Below are positions 3,226-36,051 of a DNA stretch of 36,051 bases, piece by piece (positions within the stretch are counted from its first letter, which is position 1; each line of letters begins with the position of its first letter). Source of the DNA: Elusimicrobiaceae bacterium (GTDB lineage Bacteria; Elusimicrobiota; Elusimicrobia; Elusimicrobiales; Elusimicrobiaceae); the NCBI GenBank assembly GCA_016283355.1, contig JAEEMS010000007.1:1-36051 (forward strand), written 5' to 3'. Under the pieces are notes generated by a model. That model was not told where the DNA came from. It did not search any database and saw nothing but the letters and a program-made list of their open reading frames with translations. The position numbers and the translations under genes are program-made.

Positions 3226-4647
3226 ATGGCAAGTAATTTACTGGAAGAACGTGTGCCGCCACAAGCAATAGATGCGGAAATGGCCGTGTTGGGCTCCATG
3301 ATGCTCGACAAAGACGCCGTGAATGACGTGATGGAAATTTTAAAGCCGGAACATTTTTATAAATCCGCGCATGAAAAGATATTTTCCGTCATGCAAGAAA
3401 TGACGGACCGTAACCAGGCCATTGATATCATTACGCTGGCGGCAGAGCTTAAACGCGCCGGTGCGTTGACGCAGGTGGGGGGCGAACTTTACTTAACACA
3501 ATTAGAAGAAAAAGTATCCACCGCGGCCCATGCCAAATACTATGCAGAAATCGTGTACAAAAAATTTGTCGTGCGCGATTTAATCAAAACGGCTACTGCA
3601 CTCGTGCAACGCTGTTACAAAGAGGATGACGACGACCCGCAGATGTTGGTGGATACCGCGGCCGACCAAATTTATAAACTCAGTCAAAAGCAAAAACTGA
3701 CCGGGTTTGTATCGGCCAAAGATTTGGCCCCCGAAGTGATGGAATCGTTGGAGCGGGCGTTCCATAATAAAAGCTCTATCCAGGGTGTTCCTACGGGGCT
3801 TTCCGACTTTGACCGTAAAACAGGAGGGTTGCGTAAGTCGGACCTAATTATTTTGGGTGCGCGCCCCAGCCAAGGGAAAACCGCTTTGGCCTTAAATATT
3901 GCCCACCACGCGGCGGTAGAGTGTAAAATCCCGGTGGCGTTTTTCTCTTTAGAAATGGGAAAAGAAATTTTGTGTGAACGTATGTTGGGCGCAGCCGCGA
4001 TGGTGGAAATTTATAAACTGCGTACCGGCTACTACGAACAATCCAAATGGAAAGATTTAACGCGCGAAGTAGGCCGCTTGGGCAATGCTCCGTTGTTTAT
4101 TGATGATACCTCGGCTTTGTCCATTACCGAACTGCGCATGCGTGCGCGGCGTTTAGCCAGCGATTTAAAAAAACAGGGCAAAGAATTAGGCCTTATTGTC
4201 ATTGATTATTTGCAACTCATTCGCGGCGGGGAACGGCGCACCGAAAGCCGCCAACAGGAAGTATCCGAAATTTCACGTATGCTCAAAGATTTGGCCCGTA
4301 CGCTCAATGTGCCGGTATTGGCACTTTCACAGTTGAGCCGTAAAAATGAAGACCGGACCCGTACCGATAATAAACCGCAACTTTCCGATTTGCGCGAATC
4401 CGGCTCTATCGAACAAGATGCCGACGTGGTGGCACTCATTCACCGCGAAGCGTATTACAAACGGGATGATGAATCCCTTAAAAACAAAGCTACGCTCATT
4501 ATTGCCAAACAACGTAACGGCCCTGTGGGGGATATTGATTTGGCATTCTTCGGGGAATATGCGCTGTTTACCAACCCGGCACCGGAGCATATGGAAAGTG
4601 CGCAGACCGCTGCCCCGAATATGACCGTAATGGAGATTCCCGAATAA
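3226..4647 (+). CDS. dnaB: replicative DNA helicase DnaB
   Basis: The 473-residue product is the hexameric 5'-3' helicase that unwinds DNA at the replication fork. The N-terminal DnaB domain (PPQAIDAEMAVLGSMM onward) is followed by a linker and a RecA-like ATPase domain. That domain has Walker A GARPSQGKT at residues 211-219 and a Walker B-type LGLIVIDYLQL. Length is normal for the family. Start: AGAGG at 3216-3220, five bases before ATG. Upstream, TACAAT (3165-3170) is a possible -10, and CCCTTTT/AAAAGGG around a C-rich loop (about 3179-3199) can form a small 5' UTR hairpin. The stop overlaps the alr start by one base (TAATG), implying coupled translation. First gene of the long dnaB-alr-mla run. 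Confidence 0.97.
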   Translation: MASNLLEERVPPQAIDAEMAVLGSMMLDKDAVNDVMEILKPEHFYKSAHEKIFSVMQEMTDRNQAIDIITLAAELKRAGALTQVGGELYLTQLEEKVSTAAHAKYYAEIVYKKFVVRDLIKTATALVQRCYKEDDDDPQMLVDTAADQIYKLSQKQKLTGFVSAKDLAPEVMESLERAFHNKSSIQGVPTGLSDFDRKTGGLRKSDLIILGARPSQGKTALALNIAHHAAVECKIPVAFFSLEMGKEILCERMLGAAAMVEIYKLRTGYYEQSKWKDLTREVGRLGNAPLFIDDTSALSITELRMRARRLASDLKKQGKELGLIVIDYLQLIRGGERRTESRQQEVSEISRMLKDLARTLNVPVLALSQLSRKNEDRTRTDNKPQLSDLRESGSIEQDADVVALIHREAYYKRDDESLKNKATLIIAKQRNGPVGDIDLAFFGEYALFTNPAPEHMESAQTAAPNMTVMEIPE

Positions 4648-5762
4648 TGCAACTCCCTCTTTTACGCCCGACGGTGGCCGAAATCGATTTGCAAAAATTG
4701 GCTGCCAATATGCATAAAAACGCTGCGCTCGTTGCGCAAGCGGCGGGACGGCGCGTAAAAATTTTATCGCTCTTAAAAGCCAATGCGTACGGACATGGTG
4801 CGGTACGTATCGGTCAATTTTTGGAAGAAAAAAAACTCAGCGATTTTTTTGGAGTTGCCAGCGTAGAAGAGGGAATGGAACTGCGCGCGGCGGGACTCCA
4901 AACTCCTATTTTGGTACTGGGAAGTATTTATCCGTTTGAAGCATTCGAATATGCCATTCAAAACCGTTTGGCTGTCACCATAGCCAGTTTAACGGCTGCC
5001 CAAGCCGTGGAAACCATTGCTAAAAAAATGGGCCAAAAGGCCTACTGCCACGTCAAGCAAGATACCGGAATGGGGCGCATCGGCACGCGCCGCGGCGCGA
5101 TTATGGATGTGCTTACGTTTGTGGATCGCAGCCCGCATTTGATTTTGGACGGGCTTTACAGTCATCTTTCCAGTGTTACGTCGGACCCGGCCTACACGGA
5201 AGAACAAATCGGCTACTACCGCGACACGTTAACCAGCGTACAATTAAAACAAATTCACATCAATCATTGCCACTTAGCTGCCAGTACGGCTATTCTGAAA
5301 CGGCCCGACATTTATTTTGATATGGTGCGGCCCGGACATAGTATTTACGGTCTGGAAGAAGGATTTGAACCGGTGCTTTCGCTCAAAACACGTATTGTGT
5401 ATTTGAAAGATGTTCCTGCCGGCAGTAGTATCAGTTACAACCGCAGCTTTGTGGCCGATAAACCCATGCGGGTGGCTACCCTTCCCCTGGGATATGGGGA
5501 TGGCTATTTGCGCGCTTTGTCTAACAAAGCGGATATACTTATCGGCGGACAACGTTGCCGGGTGCTGGGAAATATCACCATGGATATGTTGATGGTGGAT
5601 GTTTCGCATGTTCCCGGTGTGAAAGTGGGGGACGAAGCCGTTGCGGTTGGTGCGCAGGGCGGTCAAACAATTTCGTTAGCGGAGTTGGCAGAAAAAGCCG
5701 GTACGATTGATTACGAATTATGCACACTGCTCAAAACGCGGGTGCCGAGGATTTATAAATGA
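4647..5762 (+). CDS. alr: alanine racemase
   Basis: The 371-residue PLP enzyme interconverts L- and D-alanine, supplying D-Ala for peptidoglycan. The PLP lysine is K44 in LLKANAYGHG, and the second catalytic base is Y264 in SISYNRSF, matching the two-base mechanism of the family (Lys39/Tyr265 in Geobacillus numbering). The N-terminal TIM-barrel domain and C-terminal beta domain (PLGYGDGY, GNITMDMLMVDV) are complete. It overlaps dnaB by one base upstream and mlaE by four bases (ATGA) downstream, so it is in the same operon. Confidence 0.96.
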   Translation: MQLPLLRPTVAEIDLQKLAANMHKNAALVAQAAGRRVKILSLLKANAYGHGAVRIGQFLEEKKLSDFFGVASVEEGMELRAAGLQTPILVLGSIYPFEAFEYAIQNRLAVTIASLTAAQAVETIAKKMGQKAYCHVKQDTGMGRIGTRRGAIMDVLTFVDRSPHLILDGLYSHLSSVTSDPAYTEEQIGYYRDTLTSVQLKQIHINHCHLAASTAILKRPDIYFDMVRPGHSIYGLEEGFEPVLSLKTRIVYLKDVPAGSSISYNRSFVADKPMRVATLPLGYGDGYLRALSNKADILIGGQRCRVLGNITMDMLMVDVSHVPGVKVGDEAVAVGAQGGQTISLAELAEKAGTIDYELCTLLKTRVPRIYK

Positions 5763-6553
5763 AAAAGGTTTCCAGACCATTACAGTGGGTAGGACGTTAT
5801 GTGACACACGTGCTTGACGAAGTCGGCGGGTGTACACAAATGATCCGTTCTTGCTTTTTTTGGTTGTGGCGTTCCCGCTTTGAATGGAGCCAAGCCATGG
5901 AACAAAGTGTAGCCATCGGTGTTGCTTCCCTGGGGGTAGTAGGGCTGACGAGTTTATTTACCGGCATGGTGCTTGCATTGCAAGCCGGTAACACGATTAA
6001 CAATATTTTTGGTGATCCGATTTTTGTAGGCACGATTGTGGCCTTTTCGCTCATCCGCGAATTAGGCCCGGTGCTTACCTGTGTGGTGGTGTCCGGTCGG
6101 GCCGGGGCTGCCGTAACGGCACAAATCGGTACGATGGCCGTTACCGAACAGATTGACGCACTTTATACATTGGGCACAAACCCGGTGCGGTATTTGGTAA
6201 TTCCGCGCTTGTTCGGGTTTGTATTTACATTGCCCATTCTCACGTTATTTGCCAACGTATTCGGTATTATCGGCGGGTACTTAGTAGCGGTGTATACGCT
6301 GGGCGTACCCGGTGAAATTTATATTACGGATATCACCTCCTATATGGGAGTGGCGGACTTTATGCACGGGTTTATTAAAACGTTTGTATTTGCGTTTATG
6401 GTCGGTACCGTGTGTTGTTACAAAGGGATTAGCACCACGGGCGGTGCCGAAGGGGTAGGGAAATCTACTACCGGGGCCGTCGTTACCACGATTGTGATGG
6501 TGCTTGTACTGGATTATTTCTTAACGGCTATTTTAACAGCTTTTGGGATATAA
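5759..6553 (+). CDS. mlaE: MlaE-type ABC transporter permease
   Basis: This 264-residue inner-membrane protein belongs to the MlaE/YrbE family, the permease of the phospholipid transporter that keeps outer-membrane lipid asymmetry. The family signature is seen around residues 95-130 (SLIRELGPVLT, SGRAGAAVTAQIGTM, TEQIDALYTLG). Several hydrophobic helices follow, the last near the C-terminus (VLVLDYFLTAILTAF). It overlaps alr by four bases and is one base from the ATPase gene. MlaA, MlaB and MlaC are not in this window. Confidence 0.93.
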   Translation: MKKVSRPLQWVGRYVTHVLDEVGGCTQMIRSCFFWLWRSRFEWSQAMEQSVAIGVASLGVVGLTSLFTGMVLALQAGNTINNIFGDPIFVGTIVAFSLIRELGPVLTCVVVSGRAGAAVTAQIGTMAVTEQIDALYTLGTNPVRYLVIPRLFGFVFTLPILTLFANVFGIIGGYLVAVYTLGVPGEIYITDITSYMGVADFMHGFIKTFVFAFMVGTVCCYKGISTTGGAEGVGKSTTGAVVTTIVMVLVLDYFLTAILTAFGI

Positions 6554-6554
6554 C

Positions 6555-7319
6555 ATGATTGAAATTAAAAATTTAAAAAAAGATTTCGGCCCCAAACACG
6601 TTCTAAGAAACGTGAATTTGACGATTCCCAAAGGAGAAACGACTGTTATTTTGGGCGGTTCGGGTTCCGGGAAAAGCACGCTGATTAAATGCTTGATTGG
6701 CCTGGAAGAAGCGACGGATGGCCACATTTTAGTGGGGGGCCGTGATATTACCAAAATTCATAGCGAAATGAAAATGGCCGCCCTACGGCGTAAGTTTGGA
6801 TATCTGTTTCAAGAAGGGGCTTTATTTGACTCTATGACCGTGGGGGAGAATGTCACGTTCGGGTTGCGTTATTTAACCGATGTGCCGGAAAAAGATTATC
6901 CAAAAATCATCCGCGAAAAATTAGCGTTGGTAGGCCTGGGGGAAGACGTAGCCCGGCTCAACCCCAGCGAACTATCCGGCGGGATGAAAAAACGTGTTTC
7001 ACTGGCGCGCGTATTGGCCATAGAGCCGGAAGTGATTTTATACGACGAACCAACCACCGGGTTGGATCCGATTATGTCGGACATTATCAGTGATTTGATT
7101 ATCGATTTGAAACAAAAACTGGGAGTAACGTCCGTAGTAATTACGCATGATATGCGTTCGGCTTTTAAAATTGCCGATCACATTGCGTTTCTTTACGAGG
7201 GGCAAATTTTACTCCACGGTACGTCGCAAGATTTTAAGAAAACGGAGAACCCGTACGTTAAGCAATTTGTCAACGGCAGCAGCCACGGGCCTATCCAAAT
7301 GAAACTTATGAAAGAATAA
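6555..7319 (+). CDS. mlaF: MlaF-type ABC transporter ATP-binding protein
   Basis: The 254-residue ATPase energises the MlaE permease. Walker A GGSGSGKST lies at residues 34-42, the ABC signature LSGGM at about 140-144, and Walker B VILYDEPTTGLD follows, with the switch His in VITHDM. Start: ATG at 6555, one base after the mlaE stop; an upstream in-frame TTG at 6543 would overlap mlaE and is less likely. The order mlaE-mlaF-mlaD matches the conserved Mla core. Confidence 0.94.
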   Translation: MIEIKNLKKDFGPKHVLRNVNLTIPKGETTVILGGSGSGKSTLIKCLIGLEEATDGHILVGGRDITKIHSEMKMAALRRKFGYLFQEGALFDSMTVGENVTFGLRYLTDVPEKDYPKIIREKLALVGLGEDVARLNPSELSGGMKKRVSLARVLAIEPEVILYDEPTTGLDPIMSDIISDLIIDLKQKLGVTSVVITHDMRSAFKIADHIAFLYEGQILLHGTSQDFKKTENPYVKQFVNGSSHGPIQMKLMKE

Positions 7320-7329
7320 AAGGGGACTT

Positions 7330-8625
7330 ATGAAACCAGAAACCAAAGTAGGTATTTTTACTATAATAGGGCTTGCTTTATTCGGTTTTTCGCTCTACTT
7401 TTTAGGGGGAATTTCCGTTACCAAATCATACGATTTGAACATCAAGTTTGAAGACGTGTCCGGCTTGCCGGTAAAAGCCGCAGTAAAATTGTCCGGCGTG
7501 GAAGTGGGACGCGTGAAAAAAATCAAAATAGAAAACGGCCAGGTAATTGTAGTGGCGGAACTCAACAAAGAGGTTCGTTTGCATGAAGGAGCCCGTTTCA
7601 GTGTAGTAATGACGGGGATTATCGGTTCCAAATATTTGCGTGTGGTGCAAGGGCCGTTGTCTGCTCCGTTGATTGAGGAAGGGGCTTATGTAACGGGGGC
7701 AGATGAAATCCCGATGGATGTGATGATTGCACAAACCATGGGCAGCATTCGGGAATTTGTAGACAGCGTTAACAACAACGGCCAAATGGGTGCACAGCTC
7801 AACCAAACCATGACCGAAATCCGTCAACTCTCTGCCAATTTGAATCAAATGGTAGCGTCGTTGCGGCCTTACATTACTTCTTCCGTACAAAATTTGGATG
7901 TAGCTTCGGCCCATCTTACCGATTTAATGGCTAAGGCCGATGCGTTGTTGGCCAGTATTAACAAAGGGGAAGGTGTCATCGGCGGACTCATGAAAGACGA
8001 AACGATGAAAGATGATGTGAAACAAAGTTTGACCGATTTGAAAACTACGTTGGCGGATGTGAAACAATTTGTAGGAAAAATGGGACGGTTTAAAGTGGAT
8101 TGGAATTATGATTTCTTCTATATGCCGCAGGATAAAATTTCCACCAGCGATTTAGGGTTGGATATCTATACCCCCAGCGGATATACTTTCTACCATGTAG
8201 GAATGGCTAACCTGGGGAACGAAGACGATAAGTTAAAAGAGAAAGATTATTACGAGAAAAATAAATTTGACGTCCGTTTGGGCTTGTACAACGATTGGGC
8301 CAAATTCTCAGCCGGGCTTATTCGCGGTGCCGGCGGTGTAGCGGTGGAGTTCAAACCGTTCTACAAGCAACGCTTCCTGGACCGCTTAACGGTAGGTGCC
8401 GAAGCTACAGATTTTGGACGGGACCGTATTATCAACGGGCGTGAATTTACCAAACCGAATCTTAGCTACGGGGTAGATTTCCGCTTTAACCGTTTCTTCC
8501 GCGCCGGTGCTTGGATGCGCGATGTGTTAGAGACCAACAATGTGGCGGTACGCGCCAACGTCACATTTACCGATGAAGATATTTCCTCTTTCTTCGGGTT
8601 GGCTGCGGTGGCAGGTTCACGGTAA
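7330..8625 (+). CDS. mlaD: MCE-domain lipid transport protein (MlaD-like) with barrel-like C-terminal extension
   Basis: The 431-residue product has one N-terminal membrane anchor (about residues 7-27, IFTIIGLALFGFSLYFLGGI) and one MCE domain (about 33-115; YDLNIKFEDVSGLPVKAAVK, GSKYLRVVQG). A long helical, coiled-coil-like stretch (about 135-255) follows. The last about 170 residues have alternating aromatic and polar beta pattern (RLGLYNDWAKFSAGLIRGAG, VDFRFNRFFRAGAWM) resembling barrel strands. E. coli MlaD is about 183 residues, so this is more than twice as long. It probably anchors in the inner membrane as the MlaEF partner; the C-terminal part might reach the outer membrane (inference). 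It starts 10 bp after mlaF with a good AAGGGG site. Confidence 0.88.
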   Translation: MKPETKVGIFTIIGLALFGFSLYFLGGISVTKSYDLNIKFEDVSGLPVKAAVKLSGVEVGRVKKIKIENGQVIVVAELNKEVRLHEGARFSVVMTGIIGSKYLRVVQGPLSAPLIEEGAYVTGADEIPMDVMIAQTMGSIREFVDSVNNNGQMGAQLNQTMTEIRQLSANLNQMVASLRPYITSSVQNLDVASAHLTDLMAKADALLASINKGEGVIGGLMKDETMKDDVKQSLTDLKTTLADVKQFVGKMGRFKVDWNYDFFYMPQDKISTSDLGLDIYTPSGYTFYHVGMANLGNEDDKLKEKDYYEKNKFDVRLGLYNDWAKFSAGLIRGAGGVAVEFKPFYKQRFLDRLTVGAEATDFGRDRIINGREFTKPNLSYGVDFRFNRFFRAGAWMRDVLETNNVAVRANVTFTDEDISSFFGLAAVAGSR

Positions 8626-22717: not shown

Positions 22718-22893
22718 ATCACTTCTATCGTGACCAGAAAAAGTAAAAAGACACTGTAAAATGTCTGTTCGATAGTAATTAGTCCCAGCATTTTTTAGTG
22801 TTATAGTGTCCAAAATCTGCTTTTTGTGTGCTCAAAATGGGGATTTTGAGTTTTAAGAAAACGAGCAAAATGGGGGGATTTGTCGCCCCAAAA
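22718..22893. other. intergenic stretch without a supported gene
   Basis: No coding sequence is supportable. The only structure seen is a weak hairpin CTCAAAA-TGGGGA-TTTTGAG at 22831-22850 followed by four T. Confidence 0.5.
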
Positions 22894-22897
22894 TGAT

Positions 22898-22922
22898 AAA
22901 AAACCGTTCTTTTTCAGAACGG
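22898..22922 (-). terminator. Rho-independent terminator, minus strand (distal)
   Basis: On the minus strand CCGTTCT pairs with AGAACGG around a five-base loop, followed by six T. It lies after the displaced tRNA-Glu 3' fragment, just as the proximal terminator lies after the intact tRNA-Glu. Confidence 0.85.
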
Positions 22923-22939
22923 GTATATTAAAAGAAAAA

Positions 22940-22957
22940 CGCCCTCTAGGAGAATCG
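22940..22957 (-). repeat. displaced copy of the tRNA-Glu 3' end (18 of 18 nt)
   Basis: Identical to 23114-23131, that is, from the CGA of the T-loop through the acceptor 3' strand and discriminator G of tRNA-Glu. The encoded CCA is not included. Identity stops sharply on both sides. This is the pattern of a tRNA-targeted attachment site or of a tRNA-headed repeat. Confidence 0.85.
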
Positions 22958-23072
22958 CATTTTTGCCTTCGGCAAAACCGCAAAATTTTCAATTTCGCTT
23001 GCTTGTTTACCCGCTCGCCCTCGTTTCCACTCGTGCGACGGTTAGGAGTTCGCTCCTGCATAGTGTGGGCGC
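22958..23072 (-). repeat. structured spacer element between tRNA-Glu 3' copies (copy A)
   Basis: About 115 bp with several hairpins: TTTTGCC/GGCAAAA (22961-22977), an A/T-rich stem GCAAAATT/AATTTCGC with one mismatch (about 22981-22999), and AGGAG-TTCG-CTCCT (23044-23057). It shares the TTTGCC/GGCAAAA hairpin, an A/T-rich hairpin, and a GCTCC(T/A)TGC motif at its far end with copy B at the right end of the window. No real protein is supported. Confidence 0.6.
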
Positions 23073-23097
23073 AAAAAAAAGAACGCCAAAGCGTTCT
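23073..23097 (-). terminator. Rho-independent terminator of the tRNA operon, minus strand
   Basis: On the minus strand AGAACGC pairs with GCGTTCT around a TTTG loop and is followed by eight T. It lies 13 bp downstream of the tRNA-Glu CCA. Confidence 0.9.
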
Positions 23098-23110
23098 AAT
23101 TACTTAAAAA

Positions 23111-23185
23111 TGGCGCCCTCTAGGAGAATCGAACTCCTCTTTTCGGATTGAAAATCCGACGTCCTAACCGATAGACGAAGAGGGC
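23111..23185 (-). tRNA. tRNA-Glu (anticodon TTC)
   Basis: On the minus strand the acceptor GCCCTCT pairs with AGAGGGC, the anticodon arm is TCGGA-TTTTCAA-TCCGA (anticodon TTC), and the T-arm is AGGAG-TTCGATT-CTCCT. The discriminator is G and CCA is encoded (23111-23113). D-arm GGTTAGG is present. It lies eight bp downstream of tRNA-Lys and is cotranscribed with it. Confidence 0.95.
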
Positions 23186-23193
23186 CTAAAAAG

Positions 23194-23265
23194 TGCGCCC
23201 GGTGAGACTTGAACTCACGGCCCCCCGCTTAAAAGGCGGATGCTCTACCACTGAGCTACGAGCGC
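23194..23265 (-). tRNA. tRNA-Lys (anticodon TTT)
   Basis: On the minus strand the acceptor GCGCTCG pairs with CGGGCGC (one T-G), the D-arm is GCTCAGTGGTAGAGC, the anticodon arm TCCGC-CTTTTAA-GCGGG (anticodon TTT), and the T-arm GTGAG-TTCAAGT-CTCAC. The discriminator is A. CCA is not encoded, unlike the neighbouring tRNA-Glu, so CCA must be added enzymatically. Confidence 0.95.
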
Positions 23266-35781: not shown

Positions 35782-35950
35782 CGGAAGGGGAGGGGTTTCG
35801 CCTTCCGGTAAAATTCCTAACGGAATTTTCCTGCAGGCCGGGCTCGCGGTACTCGCCTTTGCCTTTTAGGCAAAACTCGTACATCGCTGTGCCTTTCGAA
35901 TCCCTACGCAACGCAAAGCAGTTTGCGTTGCTCCATGCTTGTCATATAAT
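35782..35950 (-). repeat. tRNA-3'-end-headed structured repeat (copy B)
   Basis: On the minus strand it ends CGAAACCCCTCCCCTTCCG (35782-35800), which reads as a tRNA T-loop remnant, T-stem strand CCCTC, acceptor strand CCCTTCC and discriminator G. The tail contains perfect hairpins AAAATTCC/GGAATTTT (35810-35829) and GCAACGCAAA/TTTGCGTTGC (35908-35931), and TTTGCC/GGCAAA (35858-35874). Its first 67 bases align with copy C at 35985, and its hairpin set with copy A at 22958. Confidence 0.65.
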
Positions 35951-35979
35951 TAAAAAGCACCACAAGGGTGCTCTTTTAA
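35951..35979 (-). terminator. terminator between repeat copies B and C
   Basis: AGCACC/GGTGCT with a five-base loop, followed on the minus strand by five T. It stands in the same position relative to copy C as the 22898 terminator does to copy A. Confidence 0.75.
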
Positions 35980-35984
35980 TTATA

Positions 35985-36051
35985 CGGAAGGGGAGGGATT
36001 TCGCCCTACATAAATTTCCTGACGGGAATTTTGTCCGGGCCCGCCCTCGCG
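35985..36051 (-). repeat. tRNA-3'-end-headed structured repeat (copy C, cut by window edge)
   Basis: On the minus strand it ends CGAAATCCCTCCCCTTCCG (35985-36003), again T-loop remnant, T-stem CCCTC, acceptor CCCTTCC and G. AAATTTCC/GGGAATTT (about 36012-36032) keeps the hairpin of copy B with a G-U pair. The tail continues beyond the window. It likely belongs to a serine-type or other G-discriminator tRNA located to the right. Confidence 0.65.

What the first reader, a model, noticed from the sequence alone, without database searches (positions are those of the whole stretch)
22894..23265. A displaced tRNA-Glu 3' end plus its own terminator lies behind the intact tRNA-Glu, separated by a structured spacer
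Seen: 18 of 18 identical bases (22940-22957 and 23114-23131), starting at the CGA of the T-loop and ending at the discriminator; each copy is followed on the minus strand by a terminator; between them lie about 115 bp with at least three hairpins. Known: integrases that target tRNA genes leave such 3' copies as att sites. Inference: either a minimal remnant of an integrated element, or a small mobile repeat that carries a tRNA 3' end and terminator and regenerates the tRNA on insertion. The spacer is too short to encode an integrase, so it would be non-autonomous.
Basis: partly seen in the sequence, partly recalled or inferred. Interest (0 to 1): 0.75.

Follow-up and report, generated by a model that had tools for sequence, protein, structure and literature searches.

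The report
Mobile hairpin repeats behind tRNA genes
Behind this tRNA-Glu gene sits one copy of a small self-complementary DNA repeat that ends in a spare copy of the tRNA's own 3' end; repeats of the same design follow about 20 kinds of tRNA gene in gut Elusimicrobia, and most of them belong to one family also found in Patescibacteria, so this looks like an undescribed kind of tiny tRNA-targeting mobile DNA rather than a one-off scar.

Summary
In detail: 18/18 identical bases, period 174 bp, a terminator after each copy. It is not an isolated scar. About 12 of 37 sister genomes (Elusimicrobiaceae) carry a homologous 146-213 bp unit behind tRNA-Glu. A second core family (covariance model R1) follows about 20 other tRNA species, including tRNA-Ser units at this window's own end (35782-36051). 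Each R1 unit has an inverted copy of the local tRNA's 3' end split by a hairpin, a structured core, then a displaced direct copy (C56 to discriminator). Cores are shared between different tRNAs and species while the arms match the local tRNA. Orthologous tRNA-Arg loci are occupied in some species, empty in others. R1 hits 101/295 Elusimicrobiota and 73/286 Patescibacteria genomes. Stems are almost purely Watson-Crick with no G.U excess, favouring a DNA hairpin over a selected RNA; two mismatches are conserved. No mobilising enzyme was found: RAYTs are mostly absent, extra integrases unlinked. E. coli tyrT repeats look alike but fail the R1 search. tRNA-Glu units also fail R1, so they join the class by architecture only.

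The parts
23193..23265 (-). tRNA-Lys(ttt), upstream in the same transcription unit
23111..23185 (-). intact tRNA-Glu(ttc) with encoded CCA (23111-23113)
23114..23131 (-). proximal 18-bp repeat: C56 of T-loop to discriminator of tRNA-Glu
   Evidence: family D1
23080..23097 (-). proximal terminator hairpin plus T run
23067..23072 (-). short inverted acceptor remnant GCGCCC (longer, GCGCCCTCTAGG, in G033)
23044..23057 (-). inverted T-arm copy AGGAGCGAACTCCT (left arm of the unit)
   Evidence: pair I2; alignment of 11 tRNA-Glu units
22980..22998 (.). imperfect hairpin GCGAAATTGAAAATTTTGC of the unit core
22961..22977 (.). right-end hairpin TTTTGCCGAAGGCAAAA next to the displaced tRNA end
   Evidence: varies with compensation between species
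22940..22957 (-). displaced direct copy of tRNA-Glu 3' end, no CCA
22904..22922 (-). distal terminator
22801..22957 (-). distal flank, 79.6% identical to the sequence directly behind tRNA-Glu in G036
35790..35907 (-). R1-family unit behind a tRNA-Ser end (117.7 bits, E 5e-32)
35993..36051 (-). second R1-family unit of the tRNA-Ser array, cut by the contig end (33 bits)
35782..35800 (-). displaced tRNA-Ser 3' end CGAAACCCCTCCCCTTCCG
35985..36003 (-). displaced tRNA-Ser 3' end CGAAATCCCTCCCCTTCCG

Best explanation
The locus is one tRNA-Glu-specific copy of a class of short, non-coding, quasi-palindromic DNA repeats that live directly behind tRNA genes. Each unit brings a tRNA 3' end (C56 to discriminator, with or without CCA) and a terminator, so the tRNA stays intact while the original 3' end is displaced by one unit length (SHOWN as arrangement). 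Units are gained and lost at orthologous tRNA genes and amplify in tandem; in the R1 family the core also moves between different tRNA genes (SHOWN by comparison, not by experiment). The outer arms are copies of the local tRNA, inverted on the left and direct on the right, and probably stay matched by hairpin template-switch correction (INFERRED). Movement most likely uses a folded single-stranded DNA form of the unit, recognised through its hairpins and conserved mismatches and joined at the T-loop (INFERRED; enzyme unknown).
For: tRNA-Glu units in about 12 of 37 sister genomes and absent from about 19, with variable core and constant logic. Tandem copies: G003 has a full plus a partial unit; R1-family pairs in G004, G007, G015. 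Count in the genus: of 76 units, 56 lie 60-300 bp behind a tRNA, 6 in arrays, 6 at contig edges, 8 other. The inverted T part matches the own tRNA at least as well as every other-amino-acid tRNA in 51/54 units; the displaced copy does so in 47/54. Core nearest neighbour is at another tRNA in another genome for 49/73 units; G033 Arg and Thr cores are identical while acceptor arms differ. tRNA-Arg(ccg): filled in G013, empty in G008, G016, G010 with the same downstream gene; filled in G022, empty in G014, G002, G024, G021. Structure: 20/33 pairs with double changes, 91.5% paired versus 27-53% when slid. hpA 671 WC, 1 GT, 0 AC; hpC 562 WC, 7 GT, 5 AC; G.A/A.G mismatches conserved 70-71 of 72. R1 in 101/295 Elusimicrobiota and 73/286 genomes of a Patescibacteria class; of 32 sampled there, 24 are within 400 bp behind a tRNA and 18 have a displaced end with at most 4/17 mismatches.
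Against: R1 does not detect tRNA-Glu units and the tRNA-Glu core is seen only at tRNA-Glu, so for this exact locus movement between tRNAs is not shown. No enzyme was identified; no circles or excision products can be seen in assemblies. The absence of G.U pairs could reflect mutation mechanism rather than DNA-level function. Several outer tRNA-Glu bases are degenerate in this copy.
Confidence: 0.66

Rival explanations
1. Scar of a conventional integrated element: a tyrosine-integrase island used the tRNA-Glu 3' end as attB and later lost its interior, leaving attL, a short residue and attR.
For: The tRNA 3' end is a classical att site. The distal flank matches what directly follows tRNA-Glu in G036. 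In G006 a CCA-bearing 3' end and terminator like the window's proximal ones lie about 5.2 kb behind tRNA-Glu with genes between. Extra phage-type integrases exist in many of these genomes.
Against: The same unit architecture with near-constant length recurs in a dozen species at tRNA-Glu and at about 20 other tRNAs, often in tandem; random deletions would not give this. Integrases are not adjacent to units.
Confidence: 0.12
2. Local tandem-inversion duplication by replication template switching at the terminator hairpin produced direct-inverted-direct copies of the tRNA 3' end, with no mobility.
For: Direct, inverted and direct copies plus duplicated terminators; near-perfect stems with paired changes fit quasipalindrome template switching (PMC7202029, PMC8794818).
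Against: A specific core with conserved hairpins and mismatches is shared between different tRNAs, species and two phyla. Local duplication cannot supply a shared core. It remains possible as the way arms are matched.
Confidence: 0.1
3. The unit is a functional RNA made from the tRNA transcript, like the annotated rtT sRNA of the E. coli tyrT operon, for example a tRNA-end decoy or regulator.
For: Strong pairing conservation; E. coli tyrT repeats are annotated as rtT sRNA and also end in a displaced tRNA 3' end.
Against: Virtually no G.U pairs, unlike selected RNA helices; terminators precede the unit and no promoter-like site is seen; no Rfam family matches.
Confidence: 0.08
4. The displaced 3' ends are kept because they act as decoy attachment sites that draw phages and islands away from the real tRNA gene.
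For: The displaced tRNA-Glu end in this window is joined to sequence that elsewhere directly follows tRNA-Glu; islands and a prophage lie at unit-bearing tRNA-Ser genes.
Against: In those tRNA-Ser cases the insertion lies at the tRNA, upstream of the unit, not at the displaced copy. No selection signal was tested; many displaced ends are degenerate.
Confidence: 0.06

Closest known systems
Escherichia coli tyrT 178-bp repeats / RtT sRNA (RF00391)
   Same: Tandem repeat units of similar length behind a tRNA, each ending in a displaced 19-nt copy of the tRNA 3' end; an inverted T-part GAAGGATGAGAA and a GCAGGC hairpin inside (by inspection).
   Different: Looked at here for one tRNA only; R1 does not match it; no split inverted acceptor or CTGC-loop hairpin A seen.
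REP / REPIN elements mobilised by RAYT (Y1 transposases)
   Same: Short palindromic, non-autonomous, single-stranded-DNA-type hairpins with conserved irregularities (PMC3733652).
   Different: PF01797 absent from most genomes that carry units; units sit behind tRNAs and have target-matched arms.
Integron attC cassettes
   Same: Imperfect palindrome with conserved unpaired bases as recombination substrate, tandem arrays (general knowledge).
   Different: No integron-type integrase recognised among the extra recombinases by inspection; no cargo gene; boundary lies in a tRNA T-loop.
tRNA-integrating islands and prophages
   Same: The tRNA 3' end is regenerated on insertion and the old end displaced.
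   Different: 174-200 bp, no gene, tandem; R1 core shared by about 20 different tRNAs.

Membership tests
tRNA-end-bounded insertion unit (class described here) | Direct copy of the local tRNA 3' end displaced by 146-213 bp | tested here: met
   18/18 at 22940-22957; 9 of 28 tRNA-Glu loci in the sample
tRNA-end-bounded insertion unit (class described here) | Inverted copy of the local tRNA T-arm at the unit's left side | tested here: met
   23044-23057; conserved AACTCC in 11/11 tRNA-Glu units
R1 core family | Match to covariance model R1 | tested here: not met
   tRNA-Glu units not detected; window 35790-35907 and 35993-36051 detected
E. coli tyrT/rtT repeats | Displaced tRNA 3' end in tandem units | tested here: met
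   searches compared
E. coli tyrT/rtT repeats | Sequence/structure homology (R1 hit in E. coli, or Rfam RF00391 hit here) | tested here: not met
   R1 does not hit L237/L238; no RF00391 hit in loci scanned
REP/RAYT | Y1 transposase in the genome | tested here: not met
   PF01797 absent from G000 and found in only 3 of the 25 genomes of the genus searched
Integron cassettes | Integron integrase | tested here: inconclusive
   12 extra tyrosine recombinases look phage-type by inspection; no IntI model was run
Classical integrative island | Own or adjacent integrase gene | tested here: not met
   unit has no coding capacity; extra integrases carry no unit motif within about 5 kb
Conserved functional RNA | Covariation including G.U intermediates | tested here: not met
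   GT 7 versus AC 5 in hpC, 1 versus 0 in hpA (R1-family units, not tRNA-Glu)

The most novel reading that the evidence does not exclude
A categorically new class of minimal mobile DNA, shared by Elusimicrobiota and Patescibacteria, that targets the T-loop of many different tRNA genes, moves as a folded single-stranded hairpin recognised by conserved mismatches, and carries or copies the target tRNA's own 3' end as its terminal arms so that the tRNA is always regenerated; tRNA-Glu units are a second core family and E. coli tyrT repeats may be a third.
Probability: 0.4. Interest if true: 0.9.

Novelty: new variant of a known kind. Interest (0 to 1): 0.72.

Why it matters
If right, tRNA genes of two phyla host a hitherto undescribed kind of sub-200-bp mobile DNA whose ends adapt to the target. 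That bears on how tRNA genes become integration hot spots, would give the unexplained tyrT repeats of E. coli a general context, and poses a testable question: which host enzyme moves them. It also warns that contigs in such genomes break at tRNA arrays.

Tried and rejected
(1) Known RNA family: Rfam at gathering and at permissive thresholds gave only tRNAs and chance matches. (2) RAYT/REP: transposase mostly absent. (3) Extra tyrosine integrases as mobiliser: phage-type, no unit nearby. (4) A unit as the att site of the 16-kb defence-type island in G021: that island carries its own large serine recombinase gene and appears inserted at CCGTAT between tRNA-Ser and the unit, so it is independent; G007 has a prophage-like region with a reverse transcriptase gene beside a tRNA-Ser array. 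(5) G036 as a simple empty site for the window's unit: weakened, because in G006 the two 3'-end types occur in reverse order around about 5.2 kb of genes. (6) Homology with E. coli rtT by R1: no hit. (7) Viral and phage collections: no match to the tRNA-Glu 18-mer, the R1 motif or a unit. (8) RNAalifold on the tRNA-Glu alignment gave no usable consensus, so R2 is effectively a sequence profile.

Full report
WHAT IS THERE. On the minus strand the order is tRNA-Lys, tRNA-Glu with encoded CCA, terminator, 118-bp spacer, an exact 18-bp copy of the tRNA-Glu 3' end (C56 to discriminator, no CCA), terminator. The spacer contains an inverted partial copy of the tRNA T-arm and several hairpins. An 18/18 match in register with a tRNA end, followed by a second terminator, is not chance.

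SAME TRNA IN SISTER SPECIES. The genome (1.4 Mb, 29 contigs) belongs to a genus of gut and rumen Elusimicrobiaceae; named records carrying the R1 motif are nearly all Elusimicrobium or Elusimicrobiaceae MAGs. The Lys-Glu tRNA pair was compared in 37 genomes. About 12 carry a unit at tRNA-Glu: G000, G003, G004, G011, G013, G015, G018, G019, G023, G029, G030, G033. About 19 have nothing comparable. Where both copies are present, tRNA end and terminator are usually near-identical within a genome and different between genomes. G003, the closest relative at this locus, has one full and one partial unit in tandem. The tRNA-Glu core (model R2) is found only behind tRNA-Glu.

TWO TYPES OF TRNA-GLU 3' END. 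In the window the CCA-bearing end with its terminator is proximal, and a CCA-less end with another terminator is distal. In G036 the CCA-less type is directly attached to the tRNA; its flank is 79.6% identical to the window's 22801-22957. In G006 the CCA-less type is proximal, and a CCA-bearing end plus terminator like the window's lies about 5.2 kb away with genes between. The order of the two types is thus reversed between genomes, as expected if different elements successively insert at, and regenerate, the same tRNA end. The distal flank of the window may therefore be part of another tRNA-Glu-targeting element; this was not resolved.

OTHER TRNAS: THE R1 FAMILY. In the same genome tRNA-Arg(ccg) and tRNA-Pro(cgg) also have displaced 3' ends, and the window's right end is a tRNA-Ser array. 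A 21-base motif in front of the displaced ends occurs in 33 of 61 relatives, nearly all in the genus, with next to no hits for the reversed control pattern. The units have a common design: tRNA; terminator; inverted acceptor 3' strand; hairpin A (loop CTGC); inverted T part; GGC-GCAGCGATG; hairpin B; CCGCGAGCC; hairpin C (loop GTCA); displaced C56 to discriminator; next terminator. Hairpin A sits at the T-stem/acceptor boundary of the inverted copy. tRNAs involved include Arg, Asn, Cys, Gln, Leu, Met, Pro, Ser, Thr, Tyr and Val species. In 76 de-duplicated units 56 lie behind a tRNA, 6 follow another unit, 6 are at contig edges and 8 have no tRNA near. Of these eight, at least L128, L159 and L176 show a disrupted or displaced tRNA.

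MOBILITY. Cores (inverted to direct T part) are closest to a unit at a different tRNA in a different genome in 49 of 73 cases. G033 carries identical cores behind tRNA-Arg and tRNA-Thr, each with its own acceptor arms. Inverted T parts match their own tRNA at least as well as any other-amino-acid tRNA in 51/54 units, displaced copies in 47/54, inverted acceptor parts in 32/54. Orthologous tRNA-Arg(ccg) sites are occupied in G013 and G022 and empty in relatives with the same downstream gene. R1 finds the family in 101 of 295 Elusimicrobiota genomes, in several families, and in 73 of 286 genomes of a Patescibacteria class reached through Candidatus Staskawiczbacteria. Of 32 Patescibacteria units examined, 24 are within 400 bp behind a tRNA and 18 have the displaced end, several perfect. 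In L322 a tRNA-Arg with the unusual T-loop TCCGATT has a unit with the corresponding AATCGG. Vertical inheritance and horizontal transfer between the phyla were not separated.

DNA OR RNA. The proposed structure covaries strongly: 20 of 33 pairs have double changes, against 2-13 when slid. But the strictly paired stems show no G.U bias: hpA 671 Watson-Crick, 1 GT, 0 AC; hpC 562, 7 and 5. Selected RNA helices normally show many G.U pairs. Paired changes without intermediates fit hairpin template switching, a known process (PMC7202029, PMC8794818). At the same time two non-pairs in hpC are kept as G.A and A.G in 70-71 of 72 units, and by inspection appear as G.T in Patescibacteria, which suggests that a protein reads a folded strand. 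This is inference.

MECHANISM, COMMITTED VIEW. Most likely the unit is a non-autonomous DNA element whose folded single strand is a recombination substrate with the crossover near C56. The T-loop sequence TTCRA is common to nearly all tRNAs, which would allow many targets; the arms are kept matched by template switching or copied from the target. How the first insertion into a new tRNA keeps that tRNA functional is not explained. No candidate enzyme stands out: RAYT is mostly absent, phage-type integrases are sporadic and unlinked, and tyrosine recombinases of XerC/XerD size are universal but untested.

COMPARISON WITH KNOWN SYSTEMS. The E. coli tyrT repeats, fetched as a yardstick, share the displaced tRNA end and by eye an inverted T part. 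They are not hit by R1, so membership is not claimed. REP/RAYT fails the transposase test; integron membership is open. Eight literature searches in the open-access library found no description; subscription papers are not covered.

LIMITS. The locus in question (tRNA-Glu) is tied to the R1 family by architecture, not by sequence. Most tRNA loci beyond Glu, Arg(ccg) and Pro(cgg) were fetched through the motif, so occupancy rates for them are not estimates. Genomes are MAGs and contigs often end in the arrays.

Noticed in passing
window 35782-36051 (-): tandem tRNA-Ser displaced 3' ends with R1-family units at the contig end; the intact tRNA-Ser(tga) is on another contig (G000:C3:13434-13520).
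   Followed up: yes
L239 2383-18700 (G021:C6): about 16-kb defence-type island (by inspection a CD-NTase-like, a patatin-like and an E2-like protein; large serine recombinase) between tRNA-Ser(tga) and its unit.
   Followed up: partly
L240 (G007:C9): prophage-like region with a reverse transcriptase gene (379 aa) that may be a diversity-generating retroelement, next to a tRNA-Ser array that has lost its intact tRNA.
   Followed up: no
L393 (G006:C50) 3289-8607: about 5.2-kb insertion between tRNA-Glu and a displaced CCA-bearing 3' end, with ankyrin-repeat and membrane-protein-like genes and repeated GGACACTATAA segments; similar segments behind tRNA-Glu in G036 and in the window's distal flank.
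   Followed up: partly
L061, L057, L136, L160, L202: a different, longer palindromic repeat (CTTCGTTGTTGCTCA..GCGCCTAGAA) replaces the left half of some units and also occurs elsewhere in these genomes.
   Followed up: no
G000:C3:1-114: second tRNA-Lys with 96% identical flank starts a contig just before a tRNA-Glu would follow, so a second Lys-Glu pair or an assembly break is likely.
   Followed up: no
L238 1035-1641 (E. coli O157:H7 tyrT): the rtT repeat holds an inverted T-part GAAGGATGAGAA not discussed in the sources seen here.
   Followed up: partly
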